From: Sinorhizobium psoraleae
GTDB lineage: Bacteria; Pseudomonadota; Alphaproteobacteria; Rhizobiales; Rhizobiaceae
Reading direction: 5' to 3'
Assembly (NCBI RefSeq): GCF_013283645.1
Contig: NZ_JABEKV010000003.1
Coordinates: 496,001-560,000, forward strand
Length of the DNA: 64,000 bases
Shown: positions 37,336-44,047 of the stretch, piece by piece
Layout of the letters: every line of letters starts with the position of its first letter
Numbering within the stretch: position 1 is the first letter of the stretch
The notes under the pieces: generated by a model
What the model was told of the DNA's origin: nothing
Databases searched by the model: none
Seen by the model: the letters and a program-made list of their open reading frames with translations, nothing else
Program-made: the position numbers and the translations under genes

Positions 37336-37674
37336 TCAGCCCAGCCTGAGATCGACGCCCGGATGCAGCTTCTTGAGGTTTGGCAGAGACTTCGATTGCC
37401 AGGGAAACTCTGAGCTTCCGCGGACCGTGAATTGGATGTTCGGCCGCTTGCGCGCCTCGATCGTGAGCTTCGCAAGCAGGTTGATTCCGGATGAATTGAG
37501 AAACTGCAATCCCGTGAGATCGACGGTCATGCGATCTGGCTCAGTGTCGAGGACGCTCATCACTAAGGAGAAAATCGGGGCATAGGCCTCGGTGCTGGGC
37601 AGGCGCATCGTGCCATCGAAATAGATGTCCTTGCCTTCCGACCAAACGCGATATTCGTCTTCGTTGATTTCCAT
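37336..37674 (-). CDS. STAS-domain partner-switch protein (Slr1659-like)
   Basis: 112 residues. The fold elements of a STAS domain are visible: [13 protein letters not shown], then the phosphorylation loop [18 protein letters not shown] with the Ser pair at the usual place. It resembles the Slr1659-type anti-anti-sigma-like regulators. It should be phosphorylated by the adjacent GHKL protein and dephosphorylated by the PP2C phosphatase, and in the free form bind a target. It is last in the minus-strand run, 15 bases after the kinase gene. Confidence 0.75.
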
Positions 37675-37689
37675 ATTTTTTGCTGCCCA

Positions 37690-38247
37690 TTAGTTCGAGA
37701 GCTCGGGGACCGTAATCGCGGCATAGGTTTCCAGCGGGATGTCGCTGTTCTGTCCACCGGGTCCAAAGACCCAAGCAAAGTGAGCACCATAATCGCTCAT
37801 GAGGGTCAGAAGGCCAAGTCCGGAGCCTGAGCCCGAGCCCGTTGCATTCGCTTCGATCCGTTCTATGAGGAGGTCGCTTGGATCGCCTGTGGTTATTTCC
37901 GAAAGCAAGTGCTGGAATTGAGCAGCCGTATCCTTGTCGATGAAATTGGAGACCTTTGCCCGAAAGGCGCTGGCGGCGATCGACGCTTCTACGATGATTT
38001 CGCCGGAAGCACGGAACTTCATTGCGTTTTCAATAAGCTCGTTCGTCAGATAGCCAACATTGTGCCGCACCTCCTTATAGAGATTGCGGGAGGTTTTATA
38101 GCGCAGCGCAGCGAACTCGGCGACGAAGTCCGAAGTGATTGCGCAGTGTTTCCAGCTGAGATCGAGCGGACCTTCAAAGAGACGAAGTCTTGTCACATCT
38201 TCGCCCGTTCCGATCGCGAGGTCCTCCAGTCCGTATAAGGTCGTCAT
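37690..38247 (-). CDS. GHKL kinase-like partner of the STAS protein (Slr1658-like)
   Basis: 185 residues. An N box LTNELIENAMKFR (about 66-78) and a Gly-rich lid GSGSGSGLGLLTLMSDYGA (about 137-155) define a GHKL ATP-binding fold as in anti-sigma-type Ser/Thr kinases; the pattern fits Slr1658-type and SiaB-like kinases. It probably phosphorylates the STAS protein coded next. It starts four bases after the phosphatase gene. Confidence 0.75.
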   Translation of the reverse strand: MTTLYGLEDLAIGTGEDVTRLRLFEGPLDLSWKHCAITSDFVAEFAALRYKTSRNLYKEVRHNVGYLTNELIENAMKFRASGEIIVEASIAASAFRAKVSNFIDKDTAAQFQHLLSEITTGDPSDLLIERIEANATGSGSGSGLGLLTLMSDYGAHFAWVFGPGGQNSDIPLETYAAITVPELSN

Positions 38248-38251
38248 CCGC

Positions 38252-41784: not shown

Positions 41785-42299
41785 CTCACGATTCCTTCCA
41801 GAGGCAAGTCAATGACAATCGTTATTTGCGGAGGATCGCTTTCCTCCAGCCGAAGCCGGGCATCGAAATTGATCGCCAGATCGAGCAGGACGACCTCCCT
41901 GCTCGGAGCGAGATCGGTCGAAATGGCATCGATATAGCGCGCGTAGGCATTTCCTCTTCGGGTCTTCGAGACCGCTTCTCGATAGAACTGTCTCTGGCCC
42001 GGCGGGCAGGGAAAGGTGAGCTTCACCCGTTCTATGGGACCGTGTCGATAGACGGCGCAGCCAATCCGCCCGTCGAGAGAACCGCCACGGAACGACACCT
42101 CCAGGAGTTCATTGAGGGCGAATGAAAAGAAATTCGAATGTCGAATAGGATCCGTTCGATTGTGGCTGATCATTCGCGCCATGAAAGTCGACAGCTGGTC
42201 GCAGTTGTGCCAGTCCGAAAGAAACGTTCCCATCGCCATCTCGACTTGGAGCAGGGGTTCGAAATGGCCGTCCGCGGCCTCGTTCTCAAGTCCGTTCAT
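41781..42299 (-). CDS. Degenerate ATPase-like protein of the partner-switch operon
   Basis: 172 residues, no signal or membrane segment. The segment FFSFALNELLEVSFRGG has the place and form of a GHKL N box, but no Gly-rich lid follows; the C-terminus is two beta-rich strands (REVVLLDLAINFDARLRLEE and PPQITIVIDLPL). I read it as a diverged relative of the kinase at 37690, possibly non-catalytic, paired with the STAS-methyltransferase coded next (ATGA overlap). The family is not certain. Confidence 0.6.
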   Translation of the reverse strand: MNGLENEAADGHFEPLLQVEMAMGTFLSDWHNCDQLSTFMARMISHNRTDPIRHSNFFSFALNELLEVSFRGGSLDGRIGCAVYRHGPIERVKLTFPCPPGQRQFYREAVSKTRRGNAYARYIDAISTDLAPSREVVLLDLAINFDARLRLEESDPPQITIVIDLPLEGIVS

Positions 42300-42364
42300 G
42301 CTGCTTCCTCCTCCGCGCGCAAACCTTGTTCAAGCTTGTCCAGACGATTTCAACGCTCCTTCGC

Positions 42365-44047
42365 TCACGTTCGTAAAAGGCCCGCAGGCGACTTGCGGAG
42401 AAATGCGCCAATTGCTTCGGCAGGCATGGGTAAGCCCAGGAAATATCCCTGCAGGCGGTCGCACCCCTCGTTCTGGAGCCAGGCCGCCTGACCACTTGTT
42501 TCCACCCCTTCGGCGGTAACATTCATGCCTAGGCCATGGGCCAATGCGATGATGGAGCGCACGATTGTCTGGCTCTTCTCGTCTGCCTCGAGGTCCTTGA
42601 TGAAGTACTGATCGATCTTGATCGTGTCGAAGGGGAAATTCTTGAGGTAGCTGAGCGAGGAATAGTAGGTACCAAAATCGTCGAGCGAAATCCGCACGCC
42701 GAGCACATTCAAGGTATTGAGCGTATCGAGATTGTTGATCGTTCGCTCCAGCAGCACCGACTCGGTAATTTCGAGCTCAAGACGGTCGGCCCGAATTCCG
42801 ACGAGATCGAGCGTTTGAGCGACGCGATCCGTAAGACCTTCGTGCAAGAATTCGGCGGGGGACAGATTGACGGCGAGTGTGAGGTGCGGCGGCCAGGTTA
42901 TCGCCGCCCGGCACGCGCGCTCCAGCAGCCATTGGCCGATCTCGCTCATAAGACCATCAGCCTCAGCCATCGGAATGAAGACATTCGGCGGAATGATGCC
43001 GACCAGGGGGTGGCGCCATCGCAAAAGCGCTTCGAAGCCAACGACCGAAGACGATGTCTTCACGAGAGGCTGGTATTCAACGAAAAACTGACCCTCCTGC
43101 AGGGCCGAGCGGAGGCCTCGGCGTAGCATTTCCCGTTGTTCGAGCACAACGAGCATGGAGCGGGTGAACGTCCTTGCCCGCCCACGGCCGTCCGTCTTTG
43201 CCGCATAGAGCGCGATGTCGGCAGCCTTCATCAGTTGCTCGACTTCGTTGCCGTCTGCCGGCGCAACGGCAACTCCGACGCTTGCGCCGACGAAGACATT
43301 GATGCCTTCGATCGTGAATGGTGCCTTGAACGTGTTGACCAGCGCCTCCGCCAGGCGCTCGGCCTCCTTAGGCTGGTCGGCCCTCCATTGGATGACCGCG
43401 AATTCGTCGCCGGCCAGCCGGTACGCGAATTCCCGATCCCTCAGAACGCTCCTGATCCGTTCCGCTGCCATCTTGAGAACGTCGTCGCCAGCGCTGTGGC
43501 CCAACGTGTCGTTGATCGGCTTGAAATCGTCGAGATCGATTTGCATAAGCGCTAACCGCGCACCGTTCGGCACGGGCAATGCGCCGCGCAAATGATCACT
43601 GAATTGCCGCCGGTTCGGCAATCCGGTCAAAGCATCATGGGTTGCCTGATGCAGCAGAAGCGCCCGATCGCTCTCGCTTTGGCTGGATGTCTCGCGGTAG
43701 GCGGAACTGCTTTCCGCTTCGATGATCCCGATGCCATTGGCACTGCGAAAGATGACGAGGATGCGGCGATTTCCCGTCGCCATATCCGCGATCTCGACCG
43801 TTCGCGGCAGTCCGTTCCCGATGACAAATTCGATGGCGGACTTCGGGCCGGGCGCCAACAGTTCGGGATAGATGTGCCAGAGCGTTGTCTCGACGAGCGA
43901 GTCGACGCCGTATGTCCTCCTGTGTGCTGCCGAGCAGCCGAAGAGATGGAAGCTCTCGTCGTAGAAAGAGACGAGTTCGTCGGTATTGGTGAGAGAGTAG
44001 CTCTCATGGGAATATGAAGCTGACATCGTCGCATCCGCGTCCGGCAT
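42365..44047 (-). CDS. PAS-GGDEF-EAL c-di-GMP enzyme heading the partner-switch operon
   Basis: 560 residues from ATG 44047 with GGAGG upstream. A PAS-like lead (about 1-125) is followed by GGDEF with RLAGDEF (first Gly changed to Ala, as in some active enzymes) and no RxxD inhibitory site (RDRE instead). The EAL domain keeps FEALLRW, NLSPAEF, EITESVLL and AEGVET, but the loop-6 motif reads DDFGTYYSSL with Tyr for Gly. Net activity cannot be predicted. As the first gene of six it parallels the diguanylate cyclase of the SiaABCD system. Confidence 0.88.
   Translation of the reverse strand: MPDADATMSASYSHESYSLTNTDELVSFYDESFHLFGCSAAHRRTYGVDSLVETTLWHIYPELLAPGPKSAIEFVIGNGLPRTVEIADMATGNRRILVIFRSANGIGIIEAESSSAYRETSSQSESDRALLLHQATHDALTGLPNRRQFSDHLRGALPVPNGARLALMQIDLDDFKPINDTLGHSAGDDVLKMAAERIRSVLRDREFAYRLAGDEFAVIQWRADQPKEAERLAEALVNTFKAPFTIEGINVFVGASVGVAVAPADGNEVEQLMKAADIALYAAKTDGRGRARTFTRSMLVVLEQREMLRRGLRSALQEGQFFVEYQPLVKTSSSVVGFEALLRWRHPLVGIIPPNVFIPMAEADGLMSEIGQWLLERACRAAITWPPHLTLAVNLSPAEFLHEGLTDRVAQTLDLVGIRADRLELEITESVLLERTINNLDTLNTLNVLGVRISLDDFGTYYSSLSYLKNFPFDTIKIDQYFIKDLEADEKSQTIVRSIIALAHGLGMNVTAEGVETSGQAAWLQNEGCDRLQGYFLGLPMPAEAIGAFLRKSPAGLLRT

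What the first reader, a model, noticed from the sequence alone, without database searches (positions are those of the whole stretch)
37336..44047. Six-gene partner-switching operon with two kinase/STAS pairs, one STAS fused to a methyltransferase, and a c-di-GMP enzyme
On one strand, with ATGA overlaps at three joints, lie a PAS-GGDEF-EAL enzyme, a degenerate ATPase-like protein, a STAS-methyltransferase fusion, a dCache-HAMP-PP2C phosphatase, a GHKL kinase-like protein and a STAS protein. The phosphatase, kinase, STAS and cyclase set parallels SiaABCD of Pseudomonas (known). The extra pair with a methyltransferase as output is not part of any system I know. I infer that one phosphatase serves two STAS proteins, one controlling a cyclase and the other a methyltransferase. 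The flanking c-di-GMP-controlled polysaccharide loci fit an output in surface polymers.
Basis: partly seen in the sequence, partly recalled or inferred. Interest (0 to 1): 0.85.

Follow-up and report, generated by a model that had tools for sequence, protein, structure and literature searches.

The report
Partner-switching operon with methyltransferase output
Rhizobia and some relatives carry a conserved five-gene signalling operon in which a membrane phosphatase, a kinase and a phosphorylatable switch protein sit with a second, apparently dead copy of the kinase and switch pair, whose switch half is fused to a methyltransferase that is probably the output.

Summary
A five-gene core, K1–STAS-MT–phosphatase–K2–S2, keeps order and strand in all 103 other loci mapped (not all distinct), from rhizobia and four unnamed families of the same class. 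Both small pairs belong to the slr1658/slr1659 superfamilies, but only K2/S2 is intact. K1 lacks the N-box Asn in 104 of 104 sequences and keeps both glycines of the glycine box in 1 of 104. The fused STAS lacks Ser/Thr at the acceptor position in 101 of 104; the window has Asn. So "one phosphatase serves two STAS proteins" is unlikely. PP2C/K2/S2 is probably the switch, and pseudokinase K1 with STAS-MT its output arm. Key SAM-site residues of the methyltransferase are invariant. The GGDEF-EAL neighbour is accessory: beside 90 of 103 loci, absent beside 13 of 13 in three families. One outside slr1658/slr1659/PP2C locus carries a GGDEF gene instead, as in SiaABCD. S. meliloti 1021 has the STAS-MT on pSymB. 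My searches of an open-access library found no paper on it.

The parts
42365..44047 (-). GGDEF-EAL protein (560 aa), accessory neighbour with AGDEF and EALLRW motifs
   Evidence: Pfam EAL 236 bits, GGDEF 153 bits; AGDEF 91/91, EAL 90/91; match beside 90 of 103 other loci, one of them inverted and possibly a paralogue (L065); none beside 13 loci of families f23, f41, f126
41781..42299 (-). K1: degenerate slr1658-type GHKL protein, predicted pseudokinase
   Evidence: NCBIfam slr1658 27 bits; hhalign to K2 96.6%, E 4.8e-10; N-box Asn absent 104/104; both glycine-box glycines kept in 1 of 104, K2 101 of 104
40609..41784 (-). STAS-MT: STAS domain (about residues 9-114) without acceptor Ser, fused to a class I SAM methyltransferase (about 156-391)
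   Evidence: D164, C166, C167, G168, G170, D171, D189, D216 each 104/104
38252..40612 (-). dCache-HAMP-SpoIIE/PP2C membrane phosphatase
   Evidence: SpoIIE 136 bits, HAMP 46, dCache_1 38; PP2C motifs GGDYYD, GDVTGHG and DD(776-777) 104/104
37690..38247 (-). K2: intact slr1658-type kinase
   Evidence: 170.3 bits over the 100-bit cut-off; N74 104/104, G143 102/104, G145 103/104
37336..37674 (-). S2: intact slr1659-type STAS protein with predicted phospho-acceptor Ser61
   Evidence: 134.1 bits over the 100-bit cut-off; N60-S61-S62-G63 104/104
36066..37247 (+). AraC-family regulator, frequent neighbour, link not established
   Evidence: HTH_18; AraC match near the operon in 48 of 80 named loci, three of them only 29-30% identical
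44399..47628 (+). HlyD-like protein and GT2 glycosyltransferase, BgsB/BgsA-like, divergent neighbour, loosely associated
   Evidence: Pfam; GT2 89% identical to a gene on S. meliloti 1021 pSymB; near the operon in 18 of 80 named loci and 0 of 20 loci of the order sample

Best explanation
It is a partner-switching module whose conserved output is a methyltransferase. Inferred steps: the dCache-HAMP receptor senses a periplasmic ligand and tunes its PP2C domain; PP2C dephosphorylates and kinase K2 phosphorylates S2 on Ser61. A second, catalytically dead copy of the kinase/STAS pair serves as the output arm: pseudokinase K1 holds the non-phosphorylatable STAS domain of STAS-MT and keeps the methyltransferase in one state. 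Unphosphorylated S2 competes for K1 (or frees the fused STAS from K2) and thereby switches the methyltransferase. In rhizobia a GGDEF-EAL enzyme lies next to the module and may receive the same signal. Shown: genes, order, domain homologies, which catalytic and acceptor residues are kept or lost. Inferred: every binding, phosphorylation and methylation step, and the sign of control.
For: Five-gene order fixed in 103 of 103 other loci. K1/STAS-MT overlap by 4 bp in 92 of 103 and STAS-MT/PP2C in 95 of 103, start codons chosen by script, so K1 and STAS-MT are probably made together. S2, K2 and PP2C motifs are intact while K1 lost the N-box Asn (104/104), the Asn at K2 position 101 (104/104) and nearly always the glycine box (103/104), and STAS-MT its acceptor (101/104). 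K1 and STAS-MT each form a clade of support 1.000 (15 loci). The MT parts are the most conserved (81% mean pairwise identity against 63% for their own STAS and 52% for K1), with SAM-site residues invariant. K1 is under purifying selection (dN/dS 0.07-0.15 in 4 of 5 comparisons, the fifth failed). Distance partial correlation: K1 with STAS 0.55 (subsample range 0.23-0.65), STAS with K2 0.38, K1 with S2 0.37, STAS with its own MT 0.07. In the order sample all 17 genomes with a strong slr1658 gene (of 367) are among the 21 STAS-MT genomes (of 397).
Against: No structure or interaction test could be run. The co-evolution test is crude: K2 with S2, which should be partners, gives 0.06, 0.13 and 0.57 in the three samples; the two halves of the phosphatase, a same-protein control, give 0.46, 0.00 and 0.37; in loci with GGDEF-EAL alone K1 with S2 is 0.00 and K1 with STAS falls to 0.15 by rank. 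Three of 104 STAS-MT have Ser at the acceptor position and 59 of 104, the window included, have Thr one residue later; 43 of 104 have Ser/Thr at neither, so phosphorylation in some lineages is not excluded. One K1 (L041) still has a GxGLG-like box. GGDEF-EAL beside 80 of 80 named loci argues that c-di-GMP matters in rhizobia. Loss of the N-box Asn makes kinase death likely, not certain.
Confidence: 0.5

Rival explanations
1. SiaABCD-like dual-output switch: PP2C and K2 act on both STAS proteins; S2 controls the GGDEF-EAL enzyme and STAS-MT is a second phospho-controlled output.
For: GGDEF-EAL beside 80 of 80 named loci with intact motifs; a slr1658/slr1659/SpoIIE locus elsewhere in the phylum has a GGDEF gene beside it (L142); Thr65 present in the window STAS-MT.
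Against: Acceptor position of STAS-MT is Asn/Ala/Met in 101 of 104 and Thr65 is not conserved (59 of 104); GGDEF-EAL absent beside 13 of 13 loci of three families (the rest of those genomes was not searched for it); the GGDEF-EAL to K1 gap is 131 bp at the median, against overlaps inside the core.
Confidence: 0.2
2. K2, not K1, holds STAS-MT: the fused STAS is a permanent unphosphorylated mimic that competes with S2 for the active kinase, and K1 is only a folding or stability subunit of the methyltransferase.
For: STAS with K2 partial correlation is positive in all three (overlapping) samples (0.38, 0.57, 0.31), and Asn cannot be phosphorylated.
Against: K1 with STAS is stronger in two of the three samples (0.55, 0.45) and similar in the third (0.52, but 0.15 by rank), and K1, not K2, overlaps the STAS-MT gene.
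Confidence: 0.2
3. The methyltransferase is housekeeping or vestigial and the STAS only tethers it; the real output of S2 lies elsewhere in the genome.
For: Several partner-switching STAS proteins are reported with unknown or distant outputs (review PMC8256260, passages).
Against: The MT is the most conserved part of the module and lies in it in all 103 loci mapped (these were found by searching for STAS-MT).
Confidence: 0.1

Closest known systems
SiaABCD of Pseudomonas aeruginosa
   Same: Membrane PP2C phosphatase, small kinase, small STAS-like switch protein phosphorylated on the residue after Asn (SiaC T68 in LLYLNTSSIK, PMC7647112, passages), with a GGDEF enzyme in the same gene group
   Different: Kinase and STAS belong to the slr1658/slr1659 families and miss the SiaB cut-off; a second degenerate pair and a STAS-fused methyltransferase are added; the c-di-GMP enzyme is GGDEF-EAL and missing beside the core in three families
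slr1658/slr1659 regulators of cyanobacteria
   Same: K2 and S2 score over both superfamily cut-offs. slr1658 is reported as a putative two-component gene whose disruption impairs recovery from iron limitation in Synechocystis (PMC7555055, passages)
   Different: A single intact pair in the two outside loci examined (L142, L164); no methyltransferase fusion and no K1 seen there
SpoIIAA/SpoIIAB/SpoIIE and RsbV/RsbW/RsbU partner switching
   Same: PP2C phosphatase, kinase and STAS protein with a conserved acceptor Ser (review PMC8256260, passages; residue-level comparison of the boxes is recalled)
   Different: No sigma factor among the six genes; the output position is taken by a predicted pseudokinase and an enzyme
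MenG/UbiE-type methyltransferases
   Same: Best NCBIfam hits of the MT half; Cys-Cys-Gly in motif I as in some MenG (recalled)
   Different: 62.8 bits against a 235-bit cut-off; in the 60 plasmid rows shown of 178, identity drops from 78.6% or more to 37% or less with nothing between

Membership tests
slr1658/slr1659 superfamily pair (NF047703/NF047705) | K2 and S2 reach the curated 100-bit cut-offs | tested here: met
   170.3 and 134.1 bits
slr1658/slr1659 superfamily pair (NF047703/NF047705) | K1 and the STAS of STAS-MT reach the cut-offs | tested here: not met
   27.3 and 37.4 bits; K1 of another family up to 82.8 bits; homology to K2 and S2 by hhalign
SiaABCD | Kinase reaches the SiaB family cut-off (NF038262, 85 bits) | tested here: not met
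   K2 16.7 bits
SiaABCD | Phosphatase reaches the SiaA cut-off (NF038263, 700 bits) | tested here: not met
   127.4 bits
SiaABCD | GGDEF output enzyme is SiaD (NF038266, 290 bits) | tested here: not met
   104.1 bits, GGDEF domain only
SiaABCD | Kinase phosphorylates and phosphatase dephosphorylates the STAS protein | not testable with these tools
   needs biochemistry
Partner-switching module | PP2C phosphatase, GHKL-type kinase with N-box and glycine box, STAS with acceptor Ser, encoded together | tested here: met
   K2, S2 and PP2C motifs
Partner-switching module | Mutually exclusive binding of partners | not testable with these tools
   no structure or binding tool available
MenG/UbiE methyltransferase | Curated equivalog cut-off | tested here: not met
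   62.8 of 235 bits for the best model
GHKL kinase (K1) | N-box Asn for Mg-ATP (role recalled) | tested here: not met
   0 of 104
GHKL kinase (K1) | Glycine box | tested here: not met
   both glycines in 1 of 104, not in the window

The most novel reading that the evidence does not exclude
A duplicated partner-switching pair has lost catalysis and become an allosteric holder: a pseudokinase and a non-phosphorylatable STAS domain together gate a fused methyltransferase in response to a periplasmic signal, making a methylated small molecule, lipid or protein the direct output of a phospho-switch, with c-di-GMP control grafted on only in rhizobia.
Probability: 0.4. Interest if true: 0.8.

Novelty: new variant of a known kind. 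Interest (0 to 1): 0.68.

Why it matters
Partner switching is known mainly for controlling sigma factors and, in SiaABCD, a cyclase. A module in which a duplicated, dead kinase/STAS pair gates a methyltransferase would show how such switches gain new outputs. The STAS-MT gene is on pSymB of the model symbiont Sinorhizobium meliloti 1021, so it can be tested directly; the K1 gene is labelled UbiE in several S. meliloti records.

Tried and rejected
Structure prediction of STAS-MT and K1: switched off, so no fold search. PDB sequence search of the K1 profile gave nothing usable (best E 0.82, a designed protein); K2 gave only weak hits, the best a histidine kinase (E 0.061); S2 hit the STAS protein RsfB weakly (E 0.0024). 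The STAS-MT profile hit only methyltransferases of other kinds, so no substrate could be named. Literature searches for S. meliloti locus tags (recalled, unverified, some in 29 and 78) returned no paper holding those tags. Searches for slr1658, slr1659, STAS with methyltransferase and related terms returned no paper in which I saw this operon described; I saw listings and, for a few papers, passages only, and the library lacks most subscription journals. PMC12589917, PMC4614683, PMC10581220 and PMC11418112 (passages) held nothing on it. Rfam: none in 36000-45000. Promoter scan: none, shuffles mean 2.1; terminators 6 against 6.8 in shuffles, uninformative. PADLOC mad2 hit of STAS-MT (65.5 bits, residues 148-303) read as the shared methyltransferase domain, not defence. 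Co-evolution analysis kept only as suggestive because results differ between samples.
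Full report
What is there. Six ORFs lie on the minus strand of a 7.43-Mb genome. Named here: GGDEF-EAL (44047-42365), K1 (42299-41781), STAS-MT (41784-40609), PP2C (40612-38252), K2 (38247-37690), S2 (37674-37336). The closest named locus is from Sinorhizobium sp. 8-89, 99% identical in STAS-MT.

Conservation. A search of 397 genomes of the order with STAS-MT found it in 21 (8 of 142 genera), in the window's own family 9 of 21 genomes. 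In the class sample 4 of 385 (the window's genome and three of another family), in the phylum sample 6 of 398, all of the window's family. The scan of named genomes found 274 relatives, of which the tool kept the best 80, mostly Sinorhizobium/Ensifer, Rhizobium, Neorhizobium, Mesorhizobium, Aminobacter and Phyllobacterium. I mapped 20 of 20 loci from the order (the window aside), the 80 named ones and 3 of 3 from the class: all 103 have K1, STAS-MT, PP2C, K2, S2 in this order and strand. These 103 are not independent: three contigs (of G361, G309, G229) have the same lengths as named contigs L074, L103, L113 and are probably the same records, and one genome (Ensifer aridi) gave two loci. The named 80 are the closest relatives of 274, and every locus was found by searching for STAS-MT.

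The c-di-GMP enzyme is accessory. A GGDEF-EAL match lies beside K1 in 80 of 80 named loci and 10 of 20 from the order sample (all of families f1 and f50). In one, L065, it is inverted and 66% identical and may be a paralogue, as L080 carries a similar inverted copy besides the normal one. It is absent beside 13 of 13 loci of families f23, f41 and f126, which keep the five-gene core; the rest of those genomes was not searched for it. Nine of these 13 instead have a gene of one cluster on the opposite strand near K1; the two members scanned are SpoIIE phosphatases. The polysaccharide genes are looser still: HlyD/GT2 in 18 of 80 named loci and 0 of 20 (some loci are cut short by contig ends). In S. 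meliloti 1021 the GT2 match (403641-405635) and STAS-MT (461150-462325) lie about 55 kb apart on pSymB. That this pair is BgsBA, with BgsA the c-di-GMP-activated mixed-linkage glucan synthase (PMC5567048, abstract start in a listing and an empty passage search), is by family resemblance and recall.

Two pairs, one intact and one degenerate. Profile comparison relates K1 to K2 (96.6%, E 4.8e-10) and STAS-MT residues 18-114 to S2 (92.5%, E 4.8e-7; N63-N64-T65-A66 lies on N60-S61-S62-G63). K1 and STAS-MT each form a clade of support 1.000 (15 loci plus two outside pairs). In 104 sequences (window + 103): S2 N60-S61-S62-G63 104/104; K2 N74 104/104, N101 104/104, both glycines G143 and G145 101/104. 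In K1 the N-box position is V 76, T 11, I 8, L 5, M 3, A 1 and never N, although N63, E64, L65 and E67 are kept 104/104; the position of K2 N101 is hydrophobic 104/104; both glycine-box glycines are kept in 1 of 104 (L041), the second alone in 12 more. In STAS-MT the acceptor position is N 94, A 4, S 3, M 3, and the next is T 59, A 30, V 13, L 1, M 1; 43 of 104 have Ser/Thr at neither. That the acceptor is the residue after Asn rests on SiaC T68 (LLYLNTSSIK, PMC7647112 passages) and SpoIIAA S58 (number in PMC8256260, passage; alignment recalled). All six genes show purifying selection in the comparisons that could be computed (dN/dS 0.05-0.16 in 28 of 30; two failed for saturated dS).

The methyltransferase looks active. 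D164, C166, C167, G168, G170, D171, D189 and D216 are 104/104. Its parts have 81% mean pairwise identity, more than any other segment measured. Its best curated matches are MenG/UbiE models far below cut-off. In plasmids, 120 records hold the whole fusion protein at 60% or more. For the MT half alone, 120 of 178 records lie at 60% or more; in the 60 rows shown identity falls straight from 78.6% to 37% or less. So I have seen this kind of MT only inside the fusion; the substrate is unknown.

Relation to other systems. Strong slr1658 genes are rare: 17 of 367 genomes of the order, all 17 also STAS-MT genomes (the other four STAS-MT genomes do not appear in the matches, probably because they were not drawn, which I did not verify; all four have K2), and 7 of 398 of the phylum, 6 with STAS-MT. 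The seventh (G819, L142) has GGDEF, slr1658, slr1659, a PstS-like protein and a SpoIIE phosphatase in a row, a SiaABCD-like layout. A Kovacikia (cyanobacterium) pair has membrane proteins next to it that look like SulP transporters by eye. So the lineage probably took a switch of this kind, duplicated the pair and joined one copy to a methyltransferase; that history is inferred. In SiaABCD unphosphorylated SiaC binds and activates SiaD and phosphorylation prevents it (PMC8457831, passages).

Who binds whom. Partial correlation of protein distances over 52 loci chosen for non-redundancy from 104 gives K1-STAS 0.55, STAS-K2 0.38, K1-S2 0.37, STAS-S2 -0.09 and STAS with its own MT 0.07. In 40 loci with GGDEF-EAL, K1-S2 vanishes, STAS-K2 is 0.57 and K1-STAS 0.52 (0.15 by rank); in 13 sequences for the lineages without it, the window among them, K1-S2 is 0.69 and K1-STAS 0.45. 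Controls are poor: K2-S2, a pair that should interact, is 0.06, 0.13 and 0.57, and the two halves of the phosphatase give 0.46, 0.00 and 0.37. This suits a network in which the fused STAS contacts K1 and K2, but is weak.

Conclusion. The direction of control, the ligand and the substrate remain open.

Noticed in passing
L144 8486-9004 (S. meliloti Ak57), orthologue of window 41781-42299: K1 is annotated as 'ubiquinone biosynthesis methyltransferase UbiE' in several S. meliloti records, apparently a misannotation since the window K1 has no methyltransferase match.
   Followed up: partly
L133-L135, L034, L036-L038, L040, L042: A cluster of genes on the opposite strand (about 300 aa; the two members scanned are SpoIIE phosphatases) lies near the operon in 9 of the 13 loci without GGDEF-EAL; a possible second input.
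   Followed up: partly
L142 4485-9140: A GGDEF / slr1658 / slr1659 / PstS-like / SpoIIE gene row in another lineage of the phylum, a possible phosphate-linked SiaABCD-like system; 1 of 48 genomes searched in its order has a slr1658 match.
   Followed up: partly
window 31860-35742, minus strand: A GT2 glycosyltransferase and two NAD-dependent sugar epimerase/dehydratase genes, probably a second surface polysaccharide locus.
   Followed up: no
PP2C sensor and MT regions, 52 loci: The distances of the phosphatase sensor region and the methyltransferase region correlate (partial 0.46; 0.49 and 0.37 in the subsets, but -0.17 by rank in the last) although they lie on different proteins; unexplained.
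   Followed up: no
L039, L043, L044, L133, L135: A row of four genes, apparently an ABC transporter, lies near the operon in two different families; the ATPase and binding-protein genes of L039 were checked by Pfam.
   Followed up: no
L057 and L065 (Ensifer aridi LMR001): One genome carries two copies of the core; the second has its GGDEF-EAL neighbour inverted and more divergent.
   Followed up: no
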